Assembly: GCA_005772945.1 (NCBI GenBank)
Contig: SXIE01000042.1
Coordinates: 1-29,734 of the forward strand
Direction: 5' to 3'
Length of the DNA: 29,734 nt
DNA from: Pseudomonadota bacterium
Lineage (GTDB): Bacteria > Myxococcota > UBA9042 > PHBI01
Part shown: in pieces, positions 4,444-29,487 of the stretch
How positions within the stretch are numbered: the first letter of the stretch is position 1
How the letters are laid out: each line of letters starts with the position of its first letter
Notes under the pieces: generated by a model
What the model was told of the DNA's origin: nothing
The model's database searches: none
Seen by the model: only the letters and a program-made list of their open reading frames with translations
Made by a program: the position numbers and the translations under genes

Positions 4444-4722
4444 CGCCCGCCCTGGCTAGATGCCGCGCGGCGCGTGCAGGCCGTCCCCACGCGCGGCAAT
4501 TGGAAGCTTCGAAGCCCACACCGCAGGCTCCGTGACACATTTCGGCTAACGCTAGAATGGTAAGGGGACGGCGCCTCAGGCGTCAACCGGCCGCGGCCGG
4601 CCACGGCGCACCGCAAGCGGGTGGCGCGGCACGTGACGGGCCATTCGGCCCCGTTGACGCGGGGGCTGAGGTGCGCGGATGCTGCGCCGCCTAGGGAATG
4701 GTCATCACCGGAGGCACCCGTC
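4444..4722. promoter_or_regulatory. Divergent intergenic region, kinase operon and collagen-like gene
   Basis: This 279-base gap between two divergent genes must hold promoters for both. A possible sigma-70-like pair on the plus strand is GTGACA at 4532-4537 and TAGAAT at 4553-4558, but the 15-base spacing is short. A perfect 14-base GC palindrome (CCGGCCGCGGCCGG) lies at 4587-4600; in this base composition it could be chance. No coding signal was seen here. Confidence 0.3.
4710..4714 (+). promoter_or_regulatory. Ribosome binding site of the collagen-like gene
   Basis: GGAGG lies eight bases before the ATG at 4723. It fixes that start over the upstream in-frame start at 4621. Confidence 0.7.
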
Positions 4723-7083
<2,361 letters not shown>

Positions 7084-7250
7084 TCGGGGGGGCCAGGCCA
7101 GCGGCCTCCTCCTTGCCCCGAATCACCTTGATCTCGAACTCGCGTGACACCGCACGCCGCTCGGTTGCCTTTTGCGCGATCTCGCGCGGAGCCGGGCAGT
7201 TGCCGTCGGCCGCGGCGTGATCCAAGATCGCGCCGTCGACACCATAGCGA
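7084..7250 (-). pseudogene. Possible coding remnant on the minus strand
   Basis: The gap between the two plus-strand surface genes contains a minus-strand frame whose composition is more protein-like than the surrounding antisense. It reads through segments such as YGVDGAILDHAAADGN and AVSREFEIKVIRGKEEA, with mostly G or C in third positions and normal use of Ile, Lys, Glu and Phe. It has no credible start, and the frame runs into sequence antisense to both neighbours. I do not recognise the family. It could be the debris of a displaced gene or simple chance. Confidence 0.25.
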
Positions 7251-7314
7251 GACAACCTGCCGCGCGCGCCCGTTTCCCGTTCGAACGTGCGCTGCGCGAC
7301 GTGCCTGCAAAGCT

Positions 7315-7319
7315 GGAGG
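7315..7319 (+). promoter_or_regulatory. Ribosome binding site deciding a GTG start
   Basis: GGAGG lies four bases before the GTG at 7324. This is short but usable, and it decides the start of the VCBS giant in favour of GTG 7324 over ATG 7351. Confidence 0.65.
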
Positions 7320-7323
7320 GAGC

Positions 7324-10300
7324 GTGACCACGAGCTCGCGATACACACCCATGTTGGCCATCGCGCTCCTCACCGCCACCGCCACGGCCCACGCCGATCA
7401 GGTCTCGTTCGTCGAGCCGCGCGCACTTCCGGTGCCCCTCCTCTCGGGCGGGGACGGCCTCGGCGGCGTCGCGGTCGCCGACTTCGATGGCGATACGCGC
7501 CCCGATATCGCCGTGACCTACAACAACCAGGATCGCAACTACCTCGGCGTCCTCCTGAACGACGGCGGAGGCGCTTTCCAAGCGCCCGTGAGCCAGTTCA
7601 CCGGTAGCAACACCGGCGGCGCCGGCATGATCGCCCGCGACTTCGACGGCGACGGCGTGATGGACGTCGCGGTCGCCTTCCCCACCCTGCGCCAGGTCCT
7701 CTTCTTCCAAGGACGCGGCGACGGCACCTTCGCGCGGCCCCGCCCGAGCCCGGTCCGGCATCGTTGCACCGGGATGCAAGTGGGACGTCTCGACGGCGAC
7801 GCCTTCGTCGACCTGGTCACCGTCAATCCGCAGGACAACTCGGTCAGTGTCCTCCTCGGCAACGGCGACGGCACCTTTCACCCCGCGACCGCGACCGGCT
7901 TCGATCCGGTCGACGTCAACCCCCAGACCTTGGCCGTCGCCGACGTCACCGGCGACCAGATCCCCGACCTCCTCGTCGGCAGCTACGATGCGCAATCGGT
8001 CGGCGTCCTCGCCGGCACGGGCGACGGCACCTTCCTCGCCCCGACCGCGCACGACGCGCGCGGGCAGGTCACCGCGCTTGCCCTCGGCGACTTCGATGGC
8101 GACACCCACACCGACGTTCTCATCGGCGTCGCAGGCGGACCGCGCACCCACGCCATCGCCCTCATGCGCGGCACCGGCGGCGGCGCCTTCGCGCCTCCCG
8201 CCGACGCCGACTTCCTGCCGACCGAGGCCTTTCCCGCCCGTTACTACATCGAAAACACCGCGCCCGATCTCGACGGCGATCACCTCCCCGACGCCGTCTT
8301 CGGCGCCCGCGCCAACCTCGTCGCCGTCGTCCGCGGCAGCCCGAGCGGCGTCTCGCTCGCGCACTACGTCGCCTCGCCCGGACCGACCACGCCCGCCGGC
8401 GCGCCCGACGGCAACGCCGTCAACGCCGCCGCGATCGCCGACTTCAACGGCGACGGCGCGCTCGATATCCTGACGGCCTCGTCCGACATCTACGGCGGCC
8501 GCATGGGCGGCCTGGCGCTGCTTTCCGGCGACCCCGCCGCCCCCGGAACCTTCCGGGCGCCACGCAGCTACTTCGCCCGCGTCGGCTGGCCCGTCGGCAC
8601 GCGCGGGCTCCTCCTCGGCGAGTTCACCAACGACGCCCACACCGATCTCCTCGCCTTCAGCGGCACCTTCGACGTGATGGCCGGCGCCGGCGACGGCACG
8701 TTTCCAGCCCCGCCGACCCTCGCACTCGGCACCGTCTCCGGACCCGGCGAGTTCTACAACACGCTGCGCGCCGCCGACCTCGACGGCAACTCCAAGCCCG
8801 ATCTCGTCTGGATCGGCACCGGCGGCGTCCAGGGCGGGCCCGGCCCGCGCTACCTCATCGCCTATGCCGACGACAGCGGCGCCTTCGCGAACGACCGCGT
8901 CGCCGTCTACCCGACCCCCTGGGGCGCCGGCCAGAACCTCCAGATCGCCGACCTCGACGGCGACGCCGATCTCGACCTCGTCTTCTTCGCCATCGCCGGC
9001 GGCGCCCCGTCGCATGGCGAGTTCGAGATCTTTCTCAACGACGGCCCCGCCACCCACGCCTTCACGCGCCTCCCCGGCAAGCCCGCGACCGGCACCCTCG
9101 CCTTCTACCCCGCCTCGGGCTTCGTCCTGGGCGACTTCGACGCCGACGGCGCGCTCGACCTCGTGACCCACGCCGCCACCGGCTACACCTATTCGAGCCG
9201 CTACCTCTTCTTCAAAGGCAACCGCGATGCCGCCACCGGGCACGGCGACGGCACCTTCCAGCCCGAGGTCGACTTCGCCGTCGACCTTCCGCCCTACACC
9301 GAGTTCACCGACATGCGCGCCGCCGATCTCGACCACGACGGCCACCTCGATCTGGTGGGCGGCGGCGCCTGGGGCGGCGTCTGGGTCCTCCGCGGCGACG
9401 GCCAGGGCGGCTTCGCGGCGCCGACCGTCTTCGACACCGGCGGCGGCGTGCGCGACCTCCGGATCATCGACCTCGACGGCGATGGCGAGCTCGACCTCGC
9501 GAGCGCCACCAACCACGGCGTGTCGGTCCTCACCGGCCTCGGCGACGGCAACTTCACGGCCCCGCTCCTCTTCGCGGTCGGTCACGGCGACGCGAGCTCC
9601 TTCGACCTCGCCGACCTCGACGGCGACGGCACGCTCGACGCCCTCACCGGCAGCAGCGCCACGAACAACGACGACTTTGTGGTCCTTCGCGGCGACAGCG
9701 GGCCGCGCGCCGATCTCGCGCTCACGGCCGGCGTCACCCCCGCCACCTTCGACGCCAGCGAGACCGTCCTCACCTTCACCTTCACCGCCACGAACAAGGG
9801 GCCGGACGCCGCTCCCGCCGCGCTCGTCCGGGTCCCCACGCGCGTCGGCGAAATCCTCCTCGACGCCACCACGAGCGTCGGCACCTGCCAGCCTGCGCCC
9901 GACGCCGTGACGTGCGCGCTCGGCGCTTTGGCCCCCGACGCCTCCGCCACCGTGACGCTCCAGGTCGTCGGCGCGCGCGCCGGCGCGCTCGGACTCTCCG
10001 CCAGCATCGCCAGCACCACGGCGGACCCGGCGACCGGCAACAACAGCGCCGTCGCCACCGCCCAGAGCGTCGACCGCGTCACCATCGAAGCCCCTGCGAA
10101 CCTCGAGGTCGGCGCCATGCAGGACTTCGTCGTGCGCTATGTCAATACCGACATGGCCACCCGCGCGGGCAGCGTCCTCGTCTTCGATCTGCCGATGGCG
10201 CTCGACTACATCTCGTCGAGCAAGGGCGGCACCTACTACCGCCTCGGGCATCGGGTCTTCTGGCGCCTCGGCGACCTGCCGCCCCAGACCGGCGGCTCCG

Positions 10301-12585
10301 TCAGCCTGCGCCTGCGCACGCAATGGGGCGTGCCCGTCCATATCCCGTTCGGCTTCCAGGCCTGGCTCGGCTGGGCGACCCCGGGTGGTTCGCCGATCGA
10401 CGTACAGCCCTACCTCGACTACCTCCCGCGCGAGGTCCTCGCTGACGACATCTTCGGCGCCGACGACGTCGACACGTTCCTGGCCGATCACCCCGCGGCA
10501 GCCGAGCTCTTCGCTCACGCCCAGAGCGAGGGCTACGCGCCGACCGGCGTCGGCCGTCACGTCGCGTACAGCGACGCCAGCGCGGTCGATCTCCTCTGGC
10601 TCGTCCGCCCCGATTCGCGCGAGGCCGCGGTCATCGACGTCACCAGCGACGGCGCCATCGGCTACCGCCTCGAGCCCGGGCGCTTCTCGCTCGTCGATGC
10701 CACGGGCGGCTTCACCTGCGAGGCGGCGACCGGCGACTGCATCGGCTTCGGCGCCTGGGCTCAGGTCCACAGCATCACCCAACAGGAGTGCCTCCGGAGC
10801 TGTCTCCTCGAGAAGATCCCCGGCGATCTGCTCGGCGACATCTTCAAGTTCTGGAACATCATCGGCGGAAGCGCCGACTGCGCCGACTGCGCCGGCAGCT
10901 CCGACCAGGCCTCCTGCGAAAAGTGCTTCGGCGCCAACTACATCCCGCTCGGCTCGAGCACGGTCGACGTGGCCGCCTGCGCGCGCGACTGCATCGCCTG
11001 CGACGAAGAGCAGCGCGCCGGCAATCCCACGCCGACCACGTGCCACGTCTGCACGCCCGGTGACAAGCGCTGGTCCTGCGACAAGATCAGCGGCTGGCTC
11101 AACCCGGCCGGCTGGGTGCGCACCTACGAATGGACCTACACCGAGTGCAACTCGTGGGGGATCTGGGGCCCCGTCGACCACACCAGCTGCCGCGGCCTCG
11201 ACTGCCAGGAATGCAACCCCGGCAAGTGCGAGCCGCCCGACGCCGCCTGCACCCAGATCCCCGCGCTCACCGCCGGCGACCCCAACGACAAGGTCGGCCC
11301 GCGCGTCGCGATCGCCGGCGACACCCTTGCCTACACCATCCACTACGAGAACGTCGGACTCGGCACCGCCTACGGGGTCTACGTGATCGACGAGCTCCCG
11401 CCCGAGCTCGACGAGACGACCCTCACGCTGCCCGCGGGCGCCCATTTCCTGCCCCGATCACGGCGCGTGACCTTCCGCGCCGGCGACCTCGCCCCGGGCG
11501 CGACCGGCTCGTTCGACTTCACGATCAAGGTCAAGGCCGAGACCCAGCTCGACACCGAGATCGTCAATCGCGCCTGGGTCGTCTTCCCGAGCGTCCCGTC
11601 CCAGACCCCGACCAACCCGGTCGTCTCGATCGTCCGCGCCCTGCGCGCCGACGACCAAAAACTCGCGACCGCGCAGCGGACCCCGCTCGCCATCACGCTC
11701 ACGGGCAACGACGGGACCGGCCCCGCGACGACCTTCACCGTCCTCTCCGGACCCGCCAACGGCACCCTCGGCGGCACCGCGCCCGCCCTCACCTACACGC
11801 CGGCGCCGAGCTTCGACGGCCTCGACCAGTTCACGTTCGTCGTCACGCGCGACGCGCTCACGAGCGCCCCGGCGACGGTCACGATCCGCGTCGACGCGAC
11901 CCCCGCCAATACGACCGCGCCGACCGTCGTCGCCGTCGCGCCGGCCGCCCAGAGTGCGGTCCGCGCCGATACGGCCACCGACCTCCCGGGAGGGACCTAC
12001 GCGCCGACCATCATCGCCTACATGAGCAAGCCCCTCGACCCGACGACCGTCACGCCCACCAGCGTGCGGCTCCTCCGCGGCACGACGCCCGTCCCGAGCG
12101 AAATCCGCTGGAACGGGCTCGACCAGAGCATCGTCCTCTTCCCGCTGGAGCCCCTCGCACCCGGCGAGACCTACGAGGCCGAGCTCGCGACCCCGCTCGC
12201 CGACAACAGCGGCAACCACCTCGCGGCCGCCTACCGCTGGACCTTCACGACCTTCCCGGTCGGCGACCTCGCGGTGAGTCCGGCCGCGCTCGACTTCGCC
12301 GCGATTCGCGTCGGGAGCGCCGCACGGCGCGCGCTGCATGTCCAAAACACCGCGGCCACCCCGACGACCATCAGCGCCGTCACTCTCGGCGGCAGCGACG
12401 CGAGCGACTTCACGGTGACCGACGACGGCTGCAGCGGCATCACCATCGAGCTCGGCGGCAGCTGCCAAGTCGAAATCCTCTTCACCCCCACTGCGCCCGG
12501 CCCCAAGGCCGCGACCCTGACGCTGACGTCGTCCAGCGCCGTCACCCCGACCCTCGCGGTCGCGCTCGCCGCAACCGCGTCGTAG
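7324..12585 (+). CDS. Giant exported VCBS/FG-GAP protein with DUF11 and ASH-type domains
   Basis: This 1,753-residue protein starts at GTG 7324, with GGAGG just upstream. A signal peptide ends near Ala-His-Ala24. Residues about 30-790 are VCBS/FG-GAP repeats with many DxDGDxxxD calcium loops (ADLDGDGTLDALTG), probably beta-propellers. Then come a DUF11/CARDB-like domain (796-905), a related beta domain (917-1015), and a Cys-rich block (about 1130-1315) with more than 20 Cys and several CxxC pairs. These are followed by a second DUF11 domain opening with GDPNDKVGP (1319-1436), a cadherin-like domain (1440-1530), a Big_5-like domain (1533-1645) and a final ASH/HYDIN-like domain (1647-1753). It is surely secreted or on the surface, with calcium-stabilised adhesion a reasonable guess. 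It ends at TAG 12583-12585, but the same frame continues into a MYXO-CTERM-like tail, so the present end may be a nonsense truncation. Confidence 0.88.
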   Translation: MTTSSRYTPMLAIALLTATATAHADQVSFVEPRALPVPLLSGGDGLGGVAVADFDGDTRPDIAVTYNNQDRNYLGVLLNDGGGAFQAPVSQFTGSNTGGAGMIARDFDGDGVMDVAVAFPTLRQVLFFQGRGDGTFARPRPSPVRHRCTGMQVGRLDGDAFVDLVTVNPQDNSVSVLLGNGDGTFHPATATGFDPVDVNPQTLAVADVTGDQIPDLLVGSYDAQSVGVLAGTGDGTFLAPTAHDARGQVTALALGDFDGDTHTDVLIGVAGGPRTHAIALMRGTGGGAFAPPADADFLPTEAFPARYYIENTAPDLDGDHLPDAVFGARANLVAVVRGSPSGVSLAHYVASPGPTTPAGAPDGNAVNAAAIADFNGDGALDILTASSDIYGGRMGGLALLSGDPAAPGTFRAPRSYFARVGWPVGTRGLLLGEFTNDAHTDLLAFSGTFDVMAGAGDGTFPAPPTLALGTVSGPGEFYNTLRAADLDGNSKPDLVWIGTGGVQGGPGPRYLIAYADDSGAFANDRVAVYPTPWGAGQNLQIADLDGDADLDLVFFAIAGGAPSHGEFEIFLNDGPATHAFTRLPGKPATGTLAFYPASGFVLGDFDADGALDLVTHAATGYTYSSRYLFFKGNRDAATGHGDGTFQPEVDFAVDLPPYTEFTDMRAADLDHDGHLDLVGGGAWGGVWVLRGDGQGGFAAPTVFDTGGGVRDLRIIDLDGDGELDLASATNHGVSVLTGLGDGNFTAPLLFAVGHGDASSFDLADLDGDGTLDALTGSSATNNDDFVVLRGDSGPRADLALTAGVTPATFDASETVLTFTFTATNKGPDAAPAALVRVPTRVGEILLDATTSVGTCQPAPDAVTCALGALAPDASATVTLQVVGARAGALGLSASIASTTADPATGNNSAVATAQSVDRVTIEAPANLEVGAMQDFVVRYVNTDMATRAGSVLVFDLPMALDYISSSKGGTYYRLGHRVFWRLGDLPPQTGGSVSLRLRTQWGVPVHIPFGFQAWLGWATPGGSPIDVQPYLDYLPREVLADDIFGADDVDTFLADHPAAAELFAHAQSEGYAPTGVGRHVAYSDASAVDLLWLVRPDSREAAVIDVTSDGAIGYRLEPGRFSLVDATGGFTCEAATGDCIGFGAWAQVHSITQQECLRSCLLEKIPGDLLGDIFKFWNIIGGSADCADCAGSSDQASCEKCFGANYIPLGSSTVDVAACARDCIACDEEQRAGNPTPTTCHVCTPGDKRWSCDKISGWLNPAGWVRTYEWTYTECNSWGIWGPVDHTSCRGLDCQECNPGKCEPPDAACTQIPALTAGDPNDKVGPRVAIAGDTLAYTIHYENVGLGTAYGVYVIDELPPELDETTLTLPAGAHFLPRSRRVTFRAGDLAPGATGSFDFTIKVKAETQLDTEIVNRAWVVFPSVPSQTPTNPVVSIVRALRADDQKLATAQRTPLAITLTGNDGTGPATTFTVLSGPANGTLGGTAPALTYTPAPSFDGLDQFTFVVTRDALTSAPATVTIRVDATPANTTAPTVVAVAPAAQSAVRADTATDLPGGTYAPTIIAYMSKPLDPTTVTPTSVRLLRGTTPVPSEIRWNGLDQSIVLFPLEPLAPGETYEAELATPLADNSGNHLAAAYRWTFTTFPVGDLAVSPAALDFAAIRVGSAARRALHVQNTAATPTTISAVTLGGSDASDFTVTDDGCSGITIELGGSCQVEILFTPTAPGPKAATLTLTSSSAVTPTLAVALAATAS

Positions 12586-12801
12586 CCAGAGGCCGAGGCG
12601 AGCGTCGAAACAGGCACCGCCGACCCCCAACCCGACGCGAGTACGCCCGACGCGACCCATCACCACGGCGGCTCGGGCTGCGGCTGCGACGCGAGCGGCG
12701 GCGACCCCGACGCAGGCCCTGCGCTACCGCTCGTGGCGCTCGCCGTCCTCGCCGCCCTCGCTCGCCGGCGGTCGCGGACGGGACCGACCCGACTCCAGTG
12801 A
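12586..12801 (+). pseudogene. In-frame MYXO-CTERM-like tail cut off by a TAG stop
   Basis: Read in the same frame as the preceding giant gene, the 71 codons after TAG 12583-12585 encode an Ala/Glu/Asp/Pro-rich linker, HHHGGSGCGCDASGG, a hydrophobic helix (ALPLVALAVLAALA) and a basic RRRSR end, with TGA at 12799-12801. Cys motif, one membrane helix and Arg cluster in that order are the MYXO-CTERM sorting-signal plan of Myxococcota. No independent start or ribosome site was seen. The obvious explanation is that it was once the C-terminus of the giant protein, for example GAG changed to TAG. Readthrough or a base-call error are alternatives. Confidence 0.75.
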
Positions 12802-12831
12802 CTGGAGCTGGGACTCCAGTGACTGGAGTCG
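12790..12831 (+). terminator. Long hairpin of two 21-nt repeat units at the end of the VCBS gene
   Basis: Two 21-base units, each containing the near-palindrome CTCCAGTGACTGGAG, fold together into one stem. The arms CGACTCCAGTGACTGGAG and CTCCAGTGACTGGAGTCG pair over 17 base pairs with one G-G mismatch and a six-base loop CTGGGA. The stop TGA of the MYXO-CTERM tail (12799-12801) is inside the 5' arm. There is no U-run, so factor-independent termination is not assured; RNA 3'-end protection is another possibility. Confidence 0.55.
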
Positions 12832-13190
12832 ACCGTCAACGTCTTCGCGCGGGAGATTGACGCGCCGCGTCGCCCATGAAACGGAGCTGCGCCGAGATCG
12901 CGATTCGCGGGGCCGGCGCGCGGCTACGCGAACGCGGCCGTGACACCGTGCGGTCCCGCGGTGGATTGGCGGCCTAGCAATTTGCGGCCACCTTGCGCGG
13001 CCATCGCGCGGCGTTCGCGATGGGCACACGCAGCGGCGGCGCAGGATGCGGGTACACGCGGGGCGGCGCGCCGACGACGCTGCCCCACCGCGGCGCATTG
13101 CTCGACTTGCCCGACTGCACGCGCTACCGCGGGCGCAGACCGGGCCGGCGACGCCACCGGGATCTTTGCGCGCGAATGCAAACGCGACGT
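12832..13190. other. Convergent intergenic region with no supported gene
   Basis: This stretch lies between the two convergent giant genes. Open frames exist in several readings, but none has a ribosome site, domain or protein-like composition. Near its right end, at 13166-13187, is a TTGCGCGCGAATGCAAACG stretch resembling the one at 28320-28338. In particular, no small immunity-type gene is visible downstream of the RHS gene. Confidence 0.5.
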
Positions 13191-13231
13191 CCAGTCACTG
13201 GAGTCGGCGTGCAGTCGCTGGAGTCGCCCGA
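13191..13231 (-). terminator. Degenerate copy of the 21-nt hairpin repeat after the RHS gene
   Basis: Two diverged units with period 20 (CCAGTCACTGGAGTCG and GCAGTCGCTGGAGTCG on the plus strand) lie about ten bases beyond the RHS stop. In the gene's direction they read CGACTCCAG-type units, the same orientation as at the other two sites. Pairing is weaker here, with only CGAC/GTCG and CCAG/CTGG blocks preserved. Confidence 0.4.
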
Positions 13232-13239
13232 ACAGGGGC

Positions 13240-16200
13240 TCAGGGAAACTCCCAAATCGTGGGGAAGCCCGCGCCCATGATGTTGTCGAACGAGCCGCCC
13301 TGATCGCGCTCTTTGTCGAGACGGAAGAACTCCCAGATCAGCTTGAGGGTCACTTTGCGCTCGGCCGAGTCACCCTTGAGCGCCAGGCCGATGGACCCAA
13401 TTTGGATGCCGCACGGGGCGAGCGGCTTCTGGATCGTGGCCTGCCCGGCGACCTTCGCGGCGCCCTTGTGGATCTCGAGCGCCATCGACTGTTTCGAGAC
13501 GGCCTGGCCGCGGAGCGGCGCCCACTCGAGCTCCATGTCGACATTCAGGCCGGGGAAGTTGTCCTTGTAGAACGGGGTCACGCCGAGGATGAGCTTCGCG
13601 CCGTCGGGCAGGTGCAGCTCCTGGCCGAACTTGATCCCGCCCGTGGAGAACACGTTCACGAAGAACATGATCGCGTCCGGGATGAGGATCAGGTGACCGA
13701 TCGCCTGGGCGACCTGCTGACTCTTACATTTGGCGACGACCGATCGCACCATGCTCTTGAGCGTGTTGAGCCCATTCTGGAGGGCGCTCGAGATGTTGAT
13801 CTCCATCACCGAGAAGAGGCCGCTCGGGTCCAGCTTGTTGATCGGATCGGCGTCCGCGTACTGGTACGGGTTGAAGCTCATCGGGCGCGTTGGTTCCCCG
13901 GCATGCGCATCGCGCGAGAGGAACGTGCCCGTCGCGGGGTCGTAGCTGCGCGCCCGCAGGTCGTAGGCGCCGGCGCCGGGCTCGAAGCGCTCGCCCGCGA
14001 AGAGGTACGGATGCTCGCTCGCACCTGCGTGCGCGAGCGTCTCGCCAAAGGGCAGGTAGTCGTAGCGGTCGCTCACGGCGCCGCTCTCATCGAGCAGTTG
14101 GCGCGTATTGCCGTGGCCGTCGTGGACCGGCCAGGCTTTGTCGCCGCCCTGTTCGCTCGCGAGGAGGCGCGTGCCCCAGGTGTAGGCGGCGGCGACGTCG
14201 CCGTCGGCGCCCCGCTCTTCGAGCACCTGATCATAGCCGGTCGGGCTCCGCCGATCGTGCACGAAGCGGGTCACGGTACCCCCGCTTGCGCGCTCGACGC
14301 GGCGCCCTTCGACGTCGTACGCGAACGAGGTCGTCGTGCCGCCGGTGCTGACCGATGCGAGCCGATCGAATGCGTCCCAGGCATAGGTCACGGTGGTACC
14401 GCCGCCGCTCATGCCGAGGCGATTGCCGCGCGTGTCGTACGTGAACGTCCGCGTGACCCCGCCGGTCGTGGCGCTGAGGAGCTCGTCGCCCGAACCGAAG
14501 GCGGAATCGGTCGTCGCGCCGTCACGCACCTCGCGCACGCGGTTGCCAACGGGATCGTACGCATAGCTGTGCGCGAAGGGGTTCGTGCCCGTGCGCGTCA
14601 CCGCGACGAGTCGGCCGGGCGCGTCGTAGTCGTACGTCTCGACCGCACCGTCGAGTGCTTCGAGGCGCGTGCGCTGGCCGCGCGCGGACCACGTCGCGAC
14701 ATAGCGCGCGAGCGTGTCGGCGCCGTTTTGGACCTCGACTTTCAACGGGCGGCCGCGCGTGTCGAACGTCGTCGTCTGCGTGACGCCGCTCGGCAAGGTG
14801 ACGCGTATGGGGTGCCCGGCGCGGTCGTAGTCGTAGCGCACGACGTCAGTCCCGCGCGTGACGCTCGCCAGGCGGTCGAGCGCGTCGTAGGTGTATTTCG
14901 TCGCGACCCCGTCGACCGCGACCTCCTCGAGGCGCCCGCCGTCGAGGTAGCGATACTCGACCTCGGCGCCATGCGGGTCGACGATCGTCGCGAGCCGGCC
15001 GTCTGCGTCATAGGTCATCTCGGTCGTGCCGCGCCCGTCGGTCGTGGTCAGCGGCAAGCCGCCCGCCGACCAGGTCACCGACTCGCTCAGCGCGCCGGCG
15101 ACGCGGCGCGTGACGCGGCCCATCGCGTCGTGCTCGAATGTGACCGTGCGCCCGTCGAAGCCGGTGCTGCTGACGACGCGGCCGGCAGCATCATAGGCGA
15201 GGACCTGCACACGCCCGCCGGGGATCACGCGGCGCGTCGGGCGCCCGTCGGCGTCATACGCGAACGAGGTGGTGCGCCCGAGCGCGTCGATGCGCGCGCG
15301 CAGCTCGCCGAAGGCGTCATAGACGAAGCGTGTCTCGGCCGCCGTTTCGGCCGTTTCGCCCGGCTCGCCGGGCTCGATCACCGAGATGAGCCGCCCGGCA
15401 CCATCGTACGCAAAGCGCTTCGTGTGTCCGTCCTCGTCGGTCTCGGCGACGAGCCGCCCGGCGGCGTCGTAGGCGGTCGCGCGCACGCTGTCGTCGGGAT
15501 GGATCGTCTGGGCGGGGAACCCGGCCGCGTCGTACGTCGTGCGGGTGCGCGCGCCGTTTGCGTCGGTCAACACGGTGCGCCTGCCGGCGAGATCGAGCTC
15601 GTAGGCGAGCTCGGGGCGCACCATGGCGCCGCTCACGCCGTCCTTCACCTCGGGTAAGATGACGCGCACGACCCGCCCGGCCGCGTCGTGTTCGTAGTCG
15701 GTGCGGTGCCCCGCGGCGTCGGTCGCCGCCGCGATGCGCCCGCCGGGGGTCAGCGTCAGGCGCTCGATCACGACGCCGTTCCTGCGCGTCGCGACCTTGC
15801 GCCCGAGCTCGTCGTACTCGGTCGCGGTGATGACGCCCGACGCATCGGTCGCGGATACGAGCCGGCCCGCGAAGTCGTGCGCGAAGGTCTCGACGCCGCC
15901 GTCGGGATGGCGCTGCTCACTCAAGAGGCCCCGTGCGTCGTAGACGAACTCCGTGCGCGCCCCGAGTGGGTCGACGATCGCGGTGCGCTGCCCCGCCGCG
16001 TCGTACTCGAAGTGCGTCGTCGCGCCCGCGGCGTCGGTCGCGGCCGTGACCTGGCCGTTCGCGTCGTAGACCCAGGTGGTCGTGCGCGGGGCACCGCCGT
16101 CGAGCGGCAGGCGGCGCTCGGCGACGAGGTGCGCGCTCGCGTCGTAGTCGAGCTCGGTGCGCTCGAGTACCACCCCGGCCGCGTCGACGGTCTCGATCAC

Positions 16201-18048
16201 GCTGACGTTGCCGCGAGCGTCGTAGGTTTGCCGCGTCACGGTGTCGCCGATCTGCGCGCGCGTCACCTGGCCGCTCCCGCCATACGCGAAGCTCGCCGAG
16301 CGCCCGCCCGCGCTCACGAGGCCGATGACGTTGCCGCGCGCGTCGTACGTGTAGGTGGCGACGCGCCCGATCGGATCGACCGAGCGCACGAGCTGGCCGT
16401 CGTCGAACGTGTTCGTGCGCGTGATCGCCAGCCGGTCGGGGTCGATCACTTCGACGAGCAGGTTGCCGTCGCTGAAGTCCGACTCGGTGCGTACGCCGTC
16501 GGCGTCGACCGCGAGCGTCGGGTTGCCGGACGCGTCGTAGGCGTAGACCACCGCGGTGTCGGTCGCCACGCCGCCGATCGTCACGCGGCCGTCGACGCCG
16601 ATCACGTTGCCGCGCGCGTCGTAGCGGAAGACGCGCGTCGTGCCGTCGGGATAGGTCGTGGTCATCGTGCGCACTTCGTCGTCGTAGGCGTGGCGCGTGC
16701 GTTGGCCCGCGGCGTCGGTCGTCGCGACGAGGCGTCCGCGCTGGTCGAACTCGCTGCGCACGACCGGGCGGCCGAGCGGATCCTCGATGCGCAGGAGACC
16801 GTGGCGCGTGTCGTAGAAAAAGCGCGTGACGTTGCCGAGCGCGTCGGTGTGGGCGACGAGGTCGCCGCTGGCGCTGTACGCGTAGCGCTGGGTCTGGCCG
16901 AGCGGATCGGTGAGTGCGGTGATGCGTCCGTAGGTGTCGCGCTCGAAGCCGACGCTCGCGTTGCCCGCGTGCGTGATGCCGTCCGCGGTGAAGGTGAGCG
17001 TATTGCCGTTGCGGTCGGTGACCGACTCGAGCCCCGCGGGCCCGATGAGGAAGACGCGGTCGTCGGCGGTCGCATAGCGGAAGCGGCTCGGCGCGTACGT
17101 TGCGAACGTGGTGTCGTCGAGCAGCGCGACCGGGCCCGGCTGCGGATCGGTGATCATCAGGAACTTGTTGTCGACGGACGCGAGCGTGCCGGTCGTGCCG
17201 GGGCGCGCGATGAACGCCGCGGTCACGAACGTGAACGGGATCAGGATCGATTGCGCCGGGGTCGGCGCGAAGTCGAAGGTCTCGACCTCCCCGCCGGGCA
17301 GCTCGATCGTGCATGTGTGCGCGCGCTCGGGCAGGAGTGCGAACGCGAGCCCGCCCTTGGCCGAGAACCAGCCTTCGCCGAGCGTCGGGGTCGCGCACTT
17401 CACCTTGACGCGCGTGAGCTCGAGGTCCCAGCCGACACCGAAGTCGCCGGGCGCCTTGTCGCGGCTCTCGTAGGTTCGGGTGATCGCGATCGGCAGCGTG
17501 CCGGTCGGAAGCGTCAGGTCGTTGAATGCGAGCGTGAAGAGGCCGAGCTTTTGCTGGCCATCGATGACCACGGTGATCTCGTGAGTGCTGCGCAGACCGG
17601 CGGCATCGAGCACCGTCAGACGTAGGAAATAAGCGCCGTTGACGAGGGTCGTGCCGTCGAGCTCGCCGAGCGTGCCGCCTTGGACCGGGTCCGTGCCCGA
17701 GGCGATCAGTTGCCAGTCGTTCGTGTTCGCGGGCGCGAGCTGGAGGTCGTAGCGCACGAGGTTGTCGTCGCTCGCGGTGCCGGTGATCGCGACCACGCCG
17801 AAGACGCTCTCGCCTTCGCCCGGCGAGGTGATCACCGCGGCCGGCGGGGTGGCGTCGCCTGCGATCTTGGCGGTGACGGTGACAGGTATCGACGCGTCGA
17901 CCGCGGCACGGGTCGCGGTGACGGTCGCGCTGCCGGCCGCGCTCGCAGTGACCGCGCCGTCGTCCGAGACGGTGGCCGCGTTGCCGCTGACCGACCAGGT
18001 GACCGCGCCGGTGATCTCCTGCGCGGAGCCGTCGGCAAAGATCCCCAT
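13240..18048 (-). CDS. RHS/YD-repeat protein, C-terminal part of a frameshifted giant
   Basis: The open frame from ATG 18048 gives 1,602 residues. Residues 1-60 are the second part of a BIG2 Ig-like domain (GIFADGSAQEITGAVTWSV). They are followed by another Ig-like domain (68-165), a DUF6531-like entry (LPTGTLPIAITRTYESRDK) and a long YD-repeat barrel, about 330-1390, with units such as TYDARGNVIG and FAYDADGRPTRR. The RHS core lies near 1365-1411: RARSYDPATGTFLSRD, then NPYQYADADPINKLDPSGL. The final 190 residues are a variable C-terminal domain I do not recognise. RHS shells usually encase a C-terminal cargo. This reading has no signal peptide and no ribosome site at 18048, and it starts in mid-domain. 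It therefore appears to be the downstream half of the lipoprotein gene that begins at 21329, displaced by one base. Confidence 0.85.
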   Translation of the reverse strand: MGIFADGSAQEITGAVTWSVSGNAATVSDDGAVTASAAGSATVTATRAAVDASIPVTVTAKIAGDATPPAAVITSPGEGESVFGVVAITGTASDDNLVRYDLQLAPANTNDWQLIASGTDPVQGGTLGELDGTTLVNGAYFLRLTVLDAAGLRSTHEITVVIDGQQKLGLFTLAFNDLTLPTGTLPIAITRTYESRDKAPGDFGVGWDLELTRVKVKCATPTLGEGWFSAKGGLAFALLPERAHTCTIELPGGEVETFDFAPTPAQSILIPFTFVTAAFIARPGTTGTLASVDNKFLMITDPQPGPVALLDDTTFATYAPSRFRYATADDRVFLIGPAGLESVTDRNGNTLTFTADGITHAGNASVGFERDTYGRITALTDPLGQTQRYAYSASGDLVAHTDALGNVTRFFYDTRHGLLRIEDPLGRPVVRSEFDQRGRLVATTDAAGQRTRHAYDDEVRTMTTTYPDGTTRVFRYDARGNVIGVDGRVTIGGVATDTAVVYAYDASGNPTLAVDADGVRTESDFSDGNLLVEVIDPDRLAITRTNTFDDGQLVRSVDPIGRVATYTYDARGNVIGLVSAGGRSASFAYGGSGQVTRAQIGDTVTRQTYDARGNVSVIETVDAAGVVLERTELDYDASAHLVAERRLPLDGGAPRTTTWVYDANGQVTAATDAAGATTHFEYDAAGQRTAIVDPLGARTEFVYDARGLLSEQRHPDGGVETFAHDFAGRLVSATDASGVITATEYDELGRKVATRRNGVVIERLTLTPGGRIAAATDAAGHRTDYEHDAAGRVVRVILPEVKDGVSGAMVRPELAYELDLAGRRTVLTDANGARTRTTYDAAGFPAQTIHPDDSVRATAYDAAGRLVAETDEDGHTKRFAYDGAGRLISVIEPGEPGETAETAAETRFVYDAFGELRARIDALGRTTSFAYDADGRPTRRVIPGGRVQVLAYDAAGRVVSSTGFDGRTVTFEHDAMGRVTRRVAGALSESVTWSAGGLPLTTTDGRGTTEMTYDADGRLATIVDPHGAEVEYRYLDGGRLEEVAVDGVATKYTYDALDRLASVTRGTDVVRYDYDRAGHPIRVTLPSGVTQTTTFDTRGRPLKVEVQNGADTLARYVATWSARGQRTRLEALDGAVETYDYDAPGRLVAVTRTGTNPFAHSYAYDPVGNRVREVRDGATTDSAFGSGDELLSATTGGVTRTFTYDTRGNRLGMSGGGTTVTYAWDAFDRLASVSTGGTTTSFAYDVEGRRVERASGGTVTRFVHDRRSPTGYDQVLEERGADGDVAAAYTWGTRLLASEQGGDKAWPVHDGHGNTRQLLDESGAVSDRYDYLPFGETLAHAGASEHPYLFAGERFEPGAGAYDLRARSYDPATGTFLSRDAHAGEPTRPMSFNPYQYADADPINKLDPSGLFSVMEINISSALQNGLNTLKSMVRSVVAKCKSQQVAQAIGHLILIPDAIMFFVNVFSTGGIKFGQELHLPDGAKLILGVTPFYKDNFPGLNVDMELEWAPLRGQAVSKQSMALEIHKGAAKVAGQATIQKPLAPCGIQIGSIGLALKGDSAERKVTLKLIWEFFRLDKERDQGGSFDNIMGAGFPTIWEFP

Positions 18049-21000
18049 GCTTTCAGCTGCTTGCGTTCGCCGACCAGCAGGCCGAGCGCGTCGGGCTCTA
18101 TCATTATTTGAGCGATCGGGCGGCTGCCGTCGATGCCGTCGCAGTCCTGATCGATGCCGTCGGCCTCGGCGTCGGGCGCGCCGGGGAAGGCCGCGGCGTT
18201 GGCGTCGTCGCAGTCGCCCTGATTCGGGGTGAAGCCGTCCGCGTCCGCGTTGCGGTCGGCGGGCCCGGGACCGCGCGACACGACGAGTGCGATCGCCGAG
18301 CCTGGCACCGCGAGCGAGCCCGCGGCCGGCGTCTGCTCCATCACCGCGCCGTCTGGCACCGTCGGGTGATCCGCGCGCAGGACGCGCCCGACGACGAAGG
18401 CGGCGGTCGTGAGCGCCGTCGTCGCTGCGGCCTGTTGCAGGCCGATCACATCGGGCACGGGCTCGGGCGCGACGACGCGGAGTGTGAACTCCAGGAGGTC
18501 ATAGCCGCCTTCGAGATCGGTCGCGGTCACGACCACCTGATGCTCGCCGAGGTCTTCCGCGATGGTCGGCCAGACCAACGCGTTGTCGCTGCCGAGGGTC
18601 ATGCCTTCGGGGCCGACCGCGAGCGCGACCGTGACGACGTCGCCGCGATCGGGATCGGCGGTATGGATCGGCGCGTGATACATCTCGCCGACGCCGACCA
18701 CCGTCGGCGGCGTGCCGAGAAACGCCGGCGGCGCGTTCGGGCGGCGGATGTCGAGCACCACCGTCGCGGTGTTCGACTCGAAGTTCGCGTCGTGCGCGCG
18801 GTAGGTGAAGCGGTCCGAGGCGCCTTCCTCCTCGGCAAGCGGCAGGTTCACGCGGAAGTTGTTCATGCCCGGCGTGAGCCAGTTCACCTCGGGCTGCGCG
18901 GGCACGTGGCCGGCGAGCGTCGCGTTCGTGATCGCGTAGGCCCACTGGTTCCACACCGGGCGCGTCGGGCTCCAGGGGGTCTGGGCGCTCGTATAGACCC
19001 ATATTCCGGTCGGGTTGCCCATAAGGCTGACGCCGGCCTCGTGCGCGACGAAGAGGTCGGCCGCGCGATCCCCGTCGATGTCGGCGATGACGAGGTTCGA
19101 GTCGTAGTACGGATGGCCCGTCTCGACGCCGCCCACCAGCTCGGCGCGCGTTGTGCCGTCGCGACCATCGAGGAAGAGGATGCCGCCCGCCGCCGCGCCG
19201 GTTTGCGCGTTGCCGCCGGCGAGGACGATCTCCATCACGCCGTCGCCGTCGAAGTCGAAGGCGGCCATGTCATGCACGCGGAGCGGGAGCCCGCCGACCG
19301 TCGGGGTATCGACATGCCAGGCGACCGTGCCGTCGCGACGCAGCGCCAGGACGTCGTTGCTGTTGCGTCCCGCGACGACGATCTCGACCGTGCCATCGCC
19401 GTCGATGTCCGCGATGACGAACCCGTCCGGCCAGCCGACGTTGGGCGCGGCGCGGTGCACGCAGTCGGTGTTCAGCGCCGTCGGGCGCGCCCGCCACAGG
19501 CAGCTGCCGTCGTGGTTGCGCACCTCGACGCCGCGCTGGGAGTTGACGATCACGATCTCGCCGAAGGCGTCGTCGTCCAGGGTGGCGGCGGCGACGAACG
19601 TGCGCGTCTGAGACTCGCTGACGGCCGGGGTGAACCAGCGGACCGTTCCGTCGGCGTTGACGATGTGACGATCGACGAGGATCTCCGGCCTGCCGTCGAG
19701 GTCGAGGTCGGCGACGACGACCGGCACCGACTCGTCCCGGTCGACGGTGCCGGCGCTGAGCGGCGTCGCCCAGAGCCGAACGTTATGGCGATCCCACGCG
19801 ATGAGGTGTGGGCTGACGACGGGATTCACCCCGATCGGCTCGATGGCGAGGATCTCGGGATAGCCGTCGCCGTCGAGATCGGCGACCGTGCGGTAGCCCG
19901 AGTCGTCGCGGCGGTCGAGGGTGGGATCGTCGGCCATCGGTCCCGACTCGACCTGGCCGAGGTGGTCGAAGATGACGTTGTGGCCGACCGAGACGCTCGG
20001 CATGACGATCTCGAGCGTGCCGTCCTGGTCGAGGTCGGCGAGCGCGGGCTGCGAGGCGCCGTAGTCGAGGTCGTCGTCGATGCCGCCCGGGTCGCCGTTG
20101 CCCCAGGTGTGGGTCGCCCAGACGAGCTCGAGCTCGGTCGTGCCGGGGTTCGCATGGAACATGACGAGCCAGTTGAGATTGCCGAAGCCGCTCTCGAACT
20201 GACAGCGCCCGATGATGTCGGCCTGCCCGTCGGCGTCGACGTCCCCGACGACGAAGCGACCGTGGACGAAGCAGCGACGTTGGCTATCGGGTCTGCGGAT
20301 GAAGCGATAGGCGGTGGCGGGCTCGAAGGGCGCAGCCGCGGGCGCGCCCGGACGATAGCCGAATGTGCCGTCGCCGTTGTCGGTGAGCGTACCGTACCGC
20401 GGTTGGGTGATGACGGTTGCCATCAGCGCGTCGCCGTCGGGGTCGACGTCGTTGCCGAGTGGCGTGAGCGTGGTCGTCACGCCGCGCGGGGTCACGAAGA
20501 GATCGTCGTTCGCGACCGGCGGGCCGTTGACGGGGATGACCCGCACGATGAAGTGCTCATCGGCGCTGTGGCCATCGCGGTCGGTGACCTGGACGACCAC
20601 GTCGTGCTCGCCCAGCTCGGCGACCTGCGGCGTCCACACGAAGCTGCCGTCCGTGAGGCGCGAGGTCGCGGGCGAGAGCGTGAGCGCGATCGTCAGCGCA
20701 TCGTCGGGCAGGTCGGGATCGGTGGCGCTGATGGGCAGCGCGAGCGTTTCGCCGAGCATGACGCGCTGATCGGGGATCGGACTCAGCGTGGGCGGAGCGC
20801 CCGGCGCGACGACGGTGATCGTGAACGAGGCGCTGGCCGTGAGGCCGCCTTGGTCGGTGACCACGAGCGCGGTCGTGTGCGCGCCGAGGTCAGCCTCGCG
20901 CGGCGCCCAGACGATGTGGCCGGTGCCGCGGTCGAGCGAGAGGCTCGTCGGTGCGTCGGTCACCGCGAACGTAAGCTGGTCGTTCGGCAGGTCGGGATCG

Positions 21001-21329
21001 GCACCGAGGGCGGTGCCCTCGTACAGATGACCGAAGACGATCGTCGCGTCGGCGGGGGCGCTCAGCGTCGGTGCGCGGTTCGGGATCTCGGGCACGTCGG
21101 GCACGTCGGGCGCGTCGGCTAGATCGTCGGGTAGATCGTCGGGCGCGTCGGGGACGTCGTCGGGCGCATCGGGGAGGTCGTCGGGCGCGTCGATCTCGGC
21201 GGCGCCGTCGGGCCTGTCCGACACGTCGTTGATGCGGTTGGCGTCGTCGTCCCCACAGGCGGGCGCGAGCGCGAAGAGGCAAGCCGCAAAGACGTCGCGG
21301 GCACGGCCCGGGGTCCAGCCTGGGTTCAT
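17832..21329 (-). CDS. FG-GAP/PASTA/MopE-motif lipoprotein, N-terminal part of a frameshifted giant
   Basis: The ATG at 21329, with GGAG about nine bases upstream, begins a signal ending Leu-Ala-Pro-Ala-Cys (Cys25), so the protein is a lipoprotein. Residues 44-83 are an Asp/Pro repeat linker. Two cadherin/dystroglycan-like domains and a Big_9-like domain fill about 84-345. FG-GAP repeats with DxDGDGxxE loops run from about 358 to 750, and another Ig-like domain starts near 863. A PASTA-like domain (VPDVIGLQQAAATTAL) is near 956-1018 and a MopE-type motif (GDCDDANAAAFPGAPDAEAD) near 1026-1066. A BIG2 domain then begins (LLVGERKQLKAWG) and breaks off at residue 1094. The remaining 71 residues, to the stop at 17832, are Arg/Pro/Ser-rich and look like translation of the wrong frame. 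One extra G at 18043-18046 would join it to the RHS frame as about 2,696 residues. Confidence 0.82.
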   Translation of the reverse strand: MNPGWTPGRARDVFAACLFALAPACGDDDANRINDVSDRPDGAAEIDAPDDLPDAPDDVPDAPDDLPDDLADAPDVPDVPEIPNRAPTLSAPADATIVFGHLYEGTALGADPDLPNDQLTFAVTDAPTSLSLDRGTGHIVWAPREADLGAHTTALVVTDQGGLTASASFTITVVAPGAPPTLSPIPDQRVMLGETLALPISATDPDLPDDALTIALTLSPATSRLTDGSFVWTPQVAELGEHDVVVQVTDRDGHSADEHFIVRVIPVNGPPVANDDLFVTPRGVTTTLTPLGNDVDPDGDALMATVITQPRYGTLTDNGDGTFGYRPGAPAAAPFEPATAYRFIRRPDSQRRCFVHGRFVVGDVDADGQADIIGRCQFESGFGNLNWLVMFHANPGTTELELVWATHTWGNGDPGGIDDDLDYGASQPALADLDQDGTLEIVMPSVSVGHNVIFDHLGQVESGPMADDPTLDRRDDSGYRTVADLDGDGYPEILAIEPIGVNPVVSPHLIAWDRHNVRLWATPLSAGTVDRDESVPVVVADLDLDGRPEILVDRHIVNADGTVRWFTPAVSESQTRTFVAAATLDDDAFGEIVIVNSQRGVEVRNHDGSCLWRARPTALNTDCVHRAAPNVGWPDGFVIADIDGDGTVEIVVAGRNSNDVLALRRDGTVAWHVDTPTVGGLPLRVHDMAAFDFDGDGVMEIVLAGGNAQTGAAAGGILFLDGRDGTTRAELVGGVETGHPYYDSNLVIADIDGDRAADLFVAHEAGVSLMGNPTGIWVYTSAQTPWSPTRPVWNQWAYAITNATLAGHVPAQPEVNWLTPGMNNFRVNLPLAEEEGASDRFTYRAHDANFESNTATVVLDIRRPNAPPAFLGTPPTVVGVGEMYHAPIHTADPDRGDVVTVALAVGPEGMTLGSDNALVWPTIAEDLGEHQVVVTATDLEGGYDLLEFTLRVVAPEPVPDVIGLQQAAATTALTTAAFVVGRVLRADHPTVPDGAVMEQTPAAGSLAVPGSAIALVVSRGPGPADRNADADGFTPNQGDCDDANAAAFPGAPDAEADGIDQDCDGIDGSRPIAQIMIEPDALGLLVGERKQLKAWGSLPTAPRRRSPARSPGRSAATRPPSRTTARSLRARPAARPSPRPVPRSTRRYLSPSPPRSQATPPRRPR
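18043..18048 (-). other. Frameshift site in a GGGG run inside the BIG2 domain
   Basis: On the minus strand the run is GGGG. With five Gs the reading would be KQLKAWGIFADGSAQE, a normal BIG2 pattern that joins the two open frames exactly. With four, the upstream frame becomes low-complexity Arg/Pro/Ser. A one-base loss in a homopolymer is the simplest explanation. Confidence 0.75.
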
Positions 21330-21447
21330 GACGATGCTCCGAGGGGAAGACGGCGAGGACGCGCAAGAGGGTCGGGTCGGTGAACCTACCTCAACGTGTC
21401 CCGCCGGAGCAATCACCGCGGTGGCGGCGATCCCAGGCTGGAGCTGG

Positions 21448-21489
21448 GACTCCAGTCACTGGAGCTGGGACTCCAGTCACTGGAGTCGG
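21448..21489 (-). terminator. Hairpin repeat across the stop codon of the desulfurase-like gene
   Basis: Two 21-base units with the core CTCCAGTCACTGGAG (plus strand) are separated by CTGGGA and pair into a stem of about 17 base pairs with one central mismatch. In the direction of the minus-strand gene, the stop TGA (21477-21479) lies inside the 5' unit, exactly as at 12790-12831. Both genes end Thr-Arg-Leu-Gln because of it. Confidence 0.55.
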
Positions 21490-26196: not shown

Positions 26197-27395
26197 GGTC
26201 GTTCGCGAAGAGCGCGAAGCGCTTGCCCGCGGCGAAATCGTTCGCGAAGAGCGCGAAGCGCTTGCCCGCGGCGAAGTCGTTCGCGAAGAGCGCGAAGCGC
26301 TCGCTCACGCTGGTCGTGCCCGATCTCTTCGATCGCCCGAGCGGCATCGGACGCATCTCGCAAACGCTTGCACTTGCATGCACGGAATGGGTGCGAGCCC
26401 ATGGCGCGCAGCTCGCGGTCATCGCGCTGCACGACACGGGCGCCCAGCGCGACCTCCGCGTCTGCCCGGAGGACGTCGCCTATCGCGGACACGCCGGCGA
26501 TCGACGCCGGTTTGCGCTGGATGTCGTCCGCGCGGCCGTCGCGGCGCCGCGCGCGCTCGTCATCTTCGGACACGCGAACTTCGCGCCGCTCGGGCTCGCG
26601 ACCGCGCTGCGCAGAGGCCGCTATGCGGTCGTCGCGCACGGGGTCGAGGCCTGGGCGAAGCTCTCGCCGCTACGCGAGCTCGCGTTGCGTCAGGCAGCGG
26701 AGATCTGGCCGGTCAGCCGTTATACCGCCGAGGTCGTCGCGCGCGTGCACCGCATCCCCAACGCGCGCATCGTTCCCGTACGCAACTGCCTCGATCCGCT
26801 CCAGCCCCTTCGTTCGATCGGCCCACCACCCCCCGGGGCACCGCGCTTCCTGGTCGTCTCGCGCCTCACCTACGGCGACCGCGACAAGGGCGTCGACCGC
26901 GCCATCGAGGCCTTCGCGCTGGCACGCGCGCGCCTCCCCGAGGGCACGACGCTCGAGATCGTCGGCGACGGCGACGACCGCGCGCGCCTCGAGGCGCTGG
27001 CCCGCGCCGGCACCGTTGAGGGGCGCGTCGTCTTTCACGGCGCCGTGTCGGACGCCGCGCTCGACGCGCTCTTCGTGGCGTGCCGCGCGTTCGTCCTGCC
27101 CTCGCGCCTCGAGGGGTTCGGCCTCGTCTTCGCCGAAGCGATGGCCCGCGGGAGGGCCGTCATCGCGGCCGCCGCGGGGGCCACGCCCGAGGTCGTGGAG
27201 GACGGCGTGACGGGTCTCCTCGTCGCTTTCGACGACCGGCGCGCGCTTGCCGATGCGATCGTCGCGCTTGCCGAGGACCCTTCACACGCGACCCAGCTCG
27301 GCGTGGCGGGCCGCGCCCGACTCGATGCCCACTTCCTCTATCCGCGCTACGCGCGCGAGGTCGCCGCGCGACTCGACACACTGCTGGGAACCTGA
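26193..27395 (+). CDS. GT4-type glycosyltransferase with repeat-encoded N-terminus
   Basis: This is a GT-B fold enzyme that would transfer a sugar from a nucleotide donor to a growing glycan. From the TTG at 26193 it is 400 residues. The enzyme proper begins at about residue 38 (LTLVVPDLFDRPSGIGRI). The donor-binding half has FLVVSRLTYGDRDKGVDRAI, EIVGDGDDRARLE and the GT4 motif PSRLEGFGLVFAEAMARG, with Glu307 and Glu315 spaced as EX7E, and ends TPEVVEDGVTGLLV. The first 36 residues are three copies of SFAKSAKRLPAAK, encoded by the 39-bp repeat. Whether they are translated is unclear: no ATG or GTG lies between the repeats and the first strand, but TTG codons at 26223 and 26262 are alternative starts. 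TTG 26193 overlaps the methyltransferase stop, which favours coupling. Confidence 0.85.
   Translation: MRSFAKSAKRLPAAKSFAKSAKRLPAAKSFAKSAKRSLTLVVPDLFDRPSGIGRISQTLALACTEWVRAHGAQLAVIALHDTGAQRDLRVCPEDVAYRGHAGDRRRFALDVVRAAVAAPRALVIFGHANFAPLGLATALRRGRYAVVAHGVEAWAKLSPLRELALRQAAEIWPVSRYTAEVVARVHRIPNARIVPVRNCLDPLQPLRSIGPPPPGAPRFLVVSRLTYGDRDKGVDRAIEAFALARARLPEGTTLEIVGDGDDRARLEALARAGTVEGRVVFHGAVSDAALDALFVACRAFVLPSRLEGFGLVFAEAMARGRAVIAAAAGATPEVVEDGVTGLLVAFDDRRALADAIVALAEDPSHATQLGVAGRARLDAHFLYPRYAREVAARLDTLLGT
26199..26301 (+). repeat. 39-bp tandem repeat, two full copies and one partial
   Basis: Units begin at 26199, 26238 and 26277. The first two are identical except for one base at the end; the third stops being similar after about 25 bases. 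The conserved core is TCGCGAAGAGCGCG followed by AAGCGCTTGCCC. A related array in the opposite strand sense lies at 29371-29487. Confidence 0.9.
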
Positions 27396-29370: not shown

Positions 29371-29487
29371 TGGGCAAGCGCTGCGCGCTCTTCGCGAGAG
29401 GGCTTCGCCTGGGCAAGCGCTGCGCGCTCTTCGCGAGAGGGCTTCGCTTGGGCAAGCGCTGCGCGCTGTTCACGAGAGGATTTGCCG
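29371..29487 (-). repeat. Three copies of the 39-bp tandem repeat
   Basis: Units begin at 29371, 29410 and 29449; the first two differ at the last base and the third is diverged. Read on the minus strand, the core TCGCGAAGAGCGCG followed by CAGCGCTTGCCC matches the array at 26199. In the direction of the downstream gene both arrays encode a peptide containing Ala-Lys-Ser-Ala-(Lys/Gln)-Arg-Leu-Pro. Confidence 0.9.

What the first reader, a model, noticed from the sequence alone, without database searches (positions are those of the whole stretch)
13240..21329. Giant surface lipoprotein gene of about 2,696 codons split by a one-base homopolymer indel
Two minus-strand frames meet inside one BIG2 domain. 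The upstream one stops making sense at KQLKAWG and the downstream one begins GIFADGSAQE. Adding one G to the GGGG run at 18043-18046 restores the domain and joins the frames exactly. The downstream half alone has no signal peptide or ribosome site. This could be an assembly error, pseudogenisation, or a phase-variable switch separating lipid anchor and propellers from the RHS shell.
Basis: partly seen in the sequence, partly recalled or inferred. Interest (0 to 1): 0.7.

Follow-up and report, generated by a model that had tools for sequence, protein, structure and literature searches.

The report
Broken giant RHS surface-protein gene
A giant surface-protein gene of a bacterium, probably a relative of the myxobacteria, has slipped out of reading frame in the middle; a second assembly shows the same break, so it looks like ordinary recent gene decay more than a sequencing slip or an on/off switch.

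Summary
Two minus-strand frames (from 21329, and 18048-13240) are pieces of one ancestral gene: lipoprotein-type signal, Ig domains, FG-GAP, PASTA, metal-binding motif, Big_2, RHS shell, C-terminal tip. Of 63 homologous proteins tested, 19 are single chains that match both frames and change frame at the junction. All 6 relatives' DNA loci that cover the junction read it in one frame. A second assembly (an 8,674-base Logan contig) has the same split and the same out-of-frame tail, with three amino-acid differences elsewhere, so a private assembly slip is unlikely, though it may stem from the same sample. Nothing found supports phase variation: the run is one of 197 four-base G or C runs in the window, no intact allele of this species is among the 120 hits listed, and the RNA there folds like shuffles. 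The downstream half is not eroded, so the break is young or the halves are still used. New: the neighbouring giant FG-GAP gene ends at a TAG, and the same frame beyond it encodes a MYXO-CTERM sorting tail. Two adjacent giant surface genes with different lesions favour decay.

The parts
17832..21329 (-). Upstream half: lipoprotein-type N-terminus, Ig domains, FG-GAP, PASTA, MopE motif, first part of Big_2; out of frame from about 18045 on
21255..21329 (-). Signal peptide up to the presumed lipid-bearing Cys (ALAPAC-GDDD)
   Evidence: By inspection; P0005, P0006 and P0008 have a Cys followed by xDDD at the corresponding place
19224..19409 (-). Best FG-GAP_3 stretch
   Evidence: Pfam PF13517, residues 670-731 of the ORF
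18276..18458 (-). PASTA domain
   Evidence: Pfam PF03793, residues 987-1047
18132..18215 (-). MopE-type metal-binding motif
   Evidence: Pfam PF11617, residues 1068-1095
18036..18093 (-). Junction where the coding frame changes, inside Big_2
   Evidence: Meeting place of the two matches of 19 homologues; codon usage
13240..18048 (-). Downstream half: rest of Big_2, DUF6531, RHS shell, C-terminal tip
17884..18012 (-). Second part of Big_2
   Evidence: Pfam PF02368, profile 33-76 of 79
17832..17835 (-). Overlap of the upstream frame's TGA with a GTG of the downstream frame; the start that P0003 was given
17416..17544 (-). DUF6531
   Evidence: Pfam PF20148
13816..14058 (-). RHS-associated core with PxxxxDPxG motif at 13819-13845
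   Evidence: TIGR03696, 61.3 bits, cut-off 32.5; motif
13243..13818 (-). C-terminal tip, 192 residues, homologous to the tips of P0005, P0006, P0008
   Evidence: 22-27% identity by blastp; two Cys invariant in 4 sequences
7144..12585 (+). Neighbouring giant FG-GAP / DUF11 / choice-of-anchor-D gene, ending at TAG
12586..12798 (+). MYXO-CTERM sorting tail in the same frame, beyond the TAG
   Evidence: TIGR03382 29.5 bits (cut-off 15.85), TIGR03901 26.5 bits (cut-off 20) on the piece 12586-12795

Best explanation
This was one gene for a giant outer-surface lipoprotein (lipid anchor, Ig domains, FG-GAP propeller, PASTA, metal-binding motif, Big_2, RHS shell, C-terminal tip) and it has recently lost its reading frame inside Big_2. 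Shown: the frame change; that homologues are single chains; that a second assembly has the same break. Inferred: the cell now makes at most a truncated lipoprotein with a short nonsense tail, and the RHS half, without export signal or good ribosome site, is hardly made or stays inside. The intact form would display an RHS shell with a cleavable tip at the surface, as proposed for teneurin-like proteins. The neighbouring giant gene is also cut, by a stop codon before its sorting tail, so the locus appears to decay under relaxed selection.
For: 19 of 63 homologous proteins change frame exactly here. 6 of 6 relatives' loci that cover the junction read it in one frame. Codon phase and usage switch there. 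The Logan copies carry the same break and nonsense tail: 1163/1165 and 1529/1531 identical. The neighbour gene ends at TAG before a MYXO-CTERM tail. Frame changes elsewhere in RHS relatives L003 and L007 and relics in other rhs genes (PMC2935791, passages) show that broken copies are ordinary.
Against: The downstream half shows no erosion: 5 of 145 otherwise invariant columns, within the range of the 10 homologues chosen, 0 of 140 to 19 of 159. It has no stop in 1,602 codons. It could therefore still be used. The Logan contig may come from the same sample. The ribosome-site test is soft: the first start codons of the two plus-strand giant ORFs score as badly.
Confidence: 0.7

Rival explanations
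1. Assembly or sequencing error: the real gene is intact and a short run was miscounted.
For: One-base frame changes at homopolymers are a known long-read error (recalled). Several database homologues (P0126, P0127, P0129, P0140, P0154) end in tails that look out of frame by eye, and loci L003 and L007 change frame elsewhere; some of these could be errors.
Against: The Logan contig has the same break with three amino-acid differences elsewhere. Logan contigs are built from reads with a SPAdes-like method and keep the major allele (PMC12424806, passages). The neighbour's lesion is an in-frame stop codon, not an indel.
Confidence: 0.15
2. The gene has split into two working genes: the lipoprotein half, and the RHS half translated by coupling at the GTGA overlap (17835-17832).
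For: The upstream frame's TGA overlaps a GTG of the downstream frame, the start given to P0003. Both halves look uneroded.
Against: Such an overlap is not rare by chance, by my rough estimate about 0.3. The ribosome site is weak. No export signal in the RHS half by inspection. No homologue examined is split at this place.
Confidence: 0.08
3. Phase-variable switch, or programmed frameshift, that connects and disconnects anchor and RHS shell.
For: It is a surface protein with a frame change at a G run. A tract as short as 5-6 bases has varied between Neisseria strains (PMC5084427, passage).
Against: The run is four bases long, one of 87 G and 110 C runs of exactly that length in the window; in that paper tracts of 8 or more were the mostly variable ones. 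No intact allele of this species among the 120 hits listed of 502. The 87 bases after the junction fold no better than shuffles (z -0.14). The homologues examined are plainly in frame here, so no recoding site is conserved.
Confidence: 0.06

Closest known systems
FG-GAP/PASTA/RHS giant proteins of uncultured bacteria (P0005, P0006, P0008)
   Same: Same domain order in one chain of 2,648-2,736 residues, 46-54% identical in each half, Cys-xDDD N-terminus, homologous tip
   Different: Theirs are single open frames; the window's is split
Bacterial teneurin-like proteins (PMC13018210, passages seen)
   Same: RHS/YD shell with PxxxxDPxG motif, N-terminal adhesion-type domains, lipoprotein anchoring in Myxococcota, small C-terminal domain; by sequence the shell matches teneurin-like chains 9pt5 and 9ifo among 31 PDB sequences
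   Different: No NHL propeller found; FG-GAP, PASTA and Big_2 instead; no immunity-like gene seen downstream
rhs genes of Enterobacteriaceae (PMC2935791, passages)
   Same: RHS core plus tip; pseudogenes and relics are ordinary
   Different: There dissociated tips lie downstream of the core; here the tip is attached and the break lies far upstream of the core

Membership tests
RHS/YD-repeat proteins | RHS/YD repeats and RHS-associated core | tested here: met
   PF05593 374 bits, 19 stretches; TIGR03696 61.3 bits against cut-off 32.5
RHS/YD-repeat proteins | PxxxxDPxG cleavage motif | tested here: met
   Present in the window and at the C-terminal place in 8 of 9 homologues printed; P0016 lacks it there. 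Cleavage itself not tested
Bacterial teneurin-like proteins | NHL propeller | tested here: not met
   No NHL match at E 0.01 in either half
Bacterial teneurin-like proteins | Teneurin-type YD shell | tested here: inconclusive
   PF25023 27.9 bits, below its cut-off of 50; PDB sequence matches to 9pt5 and 9ifo
Bacterial teneurin-like proteins | FN-plug and TIP domains | not tested
   No model for these was at hand
Polymorphic toxins | Toxic C-terminal domain | tested here: inconclusive
   No Pfam match; model mean pLDDT 61.8; no PDB fold match at E 0.001
Polymorphic toxins | Immunity gene directly downstream | tested here: inconclusive
   The 654 bases to the next gene hold open stretches but no coding-like phase in GC; no homology search was made of them
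Lipoproteins (signal peptidase II) | Lipobox | tested here: inconclusive
   By eye: window APAC, a poor fit to the consensus as I recall it; relatives LVAC, LASC, ALGC. No predictor was available
Phase-variable genes with simple repeats | Long repeat tract | tested here: not met
   Four-base run, one of 197 G or C runs of that length in the window
Phase-variable genes with simple repeats | Both alleles present in the species | tested here: inconclusive
   Only the broken allele among the 120 hits listed; reads could not be examined
MYXO-CTERM proteins (neighbour gene) | C-terminal Cys / hydrophobic / Arg-rich sorting tail | tested here: inconclusive
   The tail itself scores above both cut-offs, but lies beyond a TAG

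The most novel reading that the evidence does not exclude
Both giant surface proteins of this locus are made in two forms on purpose: a frame slip in one and stop-codon readthrough in the other decide whether the large domains stay attached to their anchor (lipid or sorting tail) or are released.
Probability: 0.04. Interest if true: 0.75.

Novelty: new member of a known kind. Interest (0 to 1): 0.27.

Why it matters
It shows that a suspected frame change can be checked without reads: single-chain homologues, a second assembly and codon phase together indicate a real lesion. It also warns that RHS giants in metagenomes can be annotated as two genes because of such breaks. If the two neighbouring interruptions were deliberate, they would be an unusual way to choose between anchored and released surface proteins.

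Tried and rejected
Phase variation: no support from tract length or hits. Literature: one search found 0 papers with at least 3 of the terms Rhs, frameshift, FG-GAP, Myxococcota. (14 papers, 12 listed) lists one, PMC5390034, that holds both RHS repeat and phase variation; I saw it in the listing only.

Programmed frameshift: the 87 bases from the junction fold like shuffles.

Toxin tip: no Pfam match. The AlphaFold model (mean pLDDT 61.8, four sequences) shows two long helices and a beta meander. Foldseek against PDB gave 519 matches at E 10 or better and none at 0.001. The model is too weak to name a fold.

Survey of Myxococcota genomes: the genome search gave no usable answer. One search covered 5 genomes with P0006: 3 had partial RHS matches at E 1e-20, none full length. 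One search covered 18 genomes: no match at E 1e-60; the tool warns that an empty answer shows nothing.

Plasmids: 1,583 records match P0001, all under 60% identity. Viral contigs: four weak matches to P0002 within residues 1050-1123.

Full report
The window is a contig of 29,734 bases (the row of P0243, the window's own protein, gives that contig length), 70.7% GC and without N. No whole genome is held for it and it has no tRNA gene. The MYXO-CTERM tail next to the gene suggests Myxococcota; that is inference.

Observation. The minus strand carries ORFs 21416-17832 and 18048-13240. The upstream gene starts most plausibly at 21329: that start has a better ribosome-site score than the GTG at 21416 and was also given to P0123. 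Pfam finds He_PIG, Big_9, FG-GAP, PASTA and a MopE motif in the upstream half, and the second part of Big_2, DUF6531 and RHS repeats in the downstream half. GC phase and codon usage change frame at the junction.

One ancestral gene. Of 63 homologous proteins used as tblastn queries against the window, 19 match upstream in one frame and downstream in the other, the matches ending or beginning within 18036-18093. The other 44, which include the two Logan copies, show a match in only one frame or none near the junction. Of 79 loci fetched from genome contigs, seven match P0006 at E 1e-20 or better over 80 or more residues. Six of them (L001, L002, L003, L004, L005, L007) cover the junction, and all six read it in one frame; L006 matches only upstream. 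Two of the six, L003 and L007, change frame at other places further downstream.

A second assembly. Searches found P0003 and P0123, each from a Logan contig of 8,674 bases, in clusters of three members. P0123 matches 1,163 of 1,165 residues of the upstream frame, including the whole nonsense tail. P0003 matches 1,529 of 1,531 residues of the downstream frame; one of its two differences is its start codon. So another assembly, with three amino-acid differences, has the same break. Logan contigs are built with a SPAdes-like method and collapse to the major allele (PMC12424806, passages). I could not see from which sample the contig comes; it may be the same one as the window. No intact copy of this species is among the 120 hits listed of 502, a search whose length limits (about 881 to 2,804 residues) would have admitted one.

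Age and consequence. At columns invariant in the other sequences, the upstream half deviates at 2 of 84 and the downstream half at 5 of 145. The ten homologues I chose deviate at 0 of 82 to 34 of 116, and at 0 of 140 to 19 of 159. There is no erosion, so the break is young or the halves are still used. The candidate starts of the downstream half, ATG 18048 and GTG 17835, have weak ribosome sites, but the first start codons of the two plus-strand giant ORFs score no better.

Function of the intact kind. The Logan copy of the window's protein and P0005, P0006 and P0008 share a Cys followed by xDDD near the N-terminus; the other three N-termini printed (P0010, P0013, P0016) do not. The window and these three relatives share a homologous tip with two Cys invariant in the four sequences. 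This suggests a surface protein whose shell holds or presents the tip. Bacterial teneurin-like proteins are described as toxin-carrying shells, predicted to be lipoproteins in Myxococcota and paired with immunity genes (PMC13018210, passages). The window's protein resembles them in plan. No NHL propeller was found and no immunity-like gene was seen downstream. I therefore file it under RHS/YD surface proteins and not under teneurin-like proteins. Whether the tip is toxic is unknown.

The neighbour. The convergent giant 7144-12585 ends in a choice-of-anchor-D/ASH domain and then TAG. Of the 12 ORF ends listed, this is the only TAG; the other 11 are TGA, one of them the stop after the frame change. 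In the same frame beyond the TAG lies a MYXO-CTERM tail above both curated cut-offs. Homologues P0252 and P0253 carry a short further tail after this domain, by eye. This gene too seems interrupted between its domains and its anchor. A stop codon is not a homopolymer error, so two neighbouring giant genes with different lesions point to relaxed selection. I have no second assembly for this lesion.

Verdict. The lesion most likely is real, sits in one gene, and is recent inactivation. Switching is not supported. The gene is a broken member of a known kind.

Noticed in passing
12583-12798: The giant FG-GAP gene 7144-12585 ends at TAG, and the same frame beyond it encodes a MYXO-CTERM sorting tail.
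   Followed up: partly
12789-12829, 13185-13226, 21438-21487: A palindrome (CTCCAGTNACTGGAG) occurs 5 times at up to 2 mismatches, against 0.03 expected, only on the two sides of the RHS gene, in pairs about 21 bases apart that could form hairpins. It was in none of 87 loci and in 3 stretches of viral contigs.
   Followed up: partly
26199-26301 and 29371-29479: Two arrays of 39-base tandem repeats whose units look like inverted relatives of each other by eye.
   Followed up: no
4621-7083: Collagen-like gene with tandem repeats and a beta-helix domain, followed by a run of seven G at 7086.
   Followed up: no
L003 about 16852-16924; L007 about 3473-3850: Frame changes elsewhere in relatives' RHS genes; homologues P0126, P0127, P0129, P0140 and P0154 end in tails that look out of frame by eye.
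   Followed up: partly
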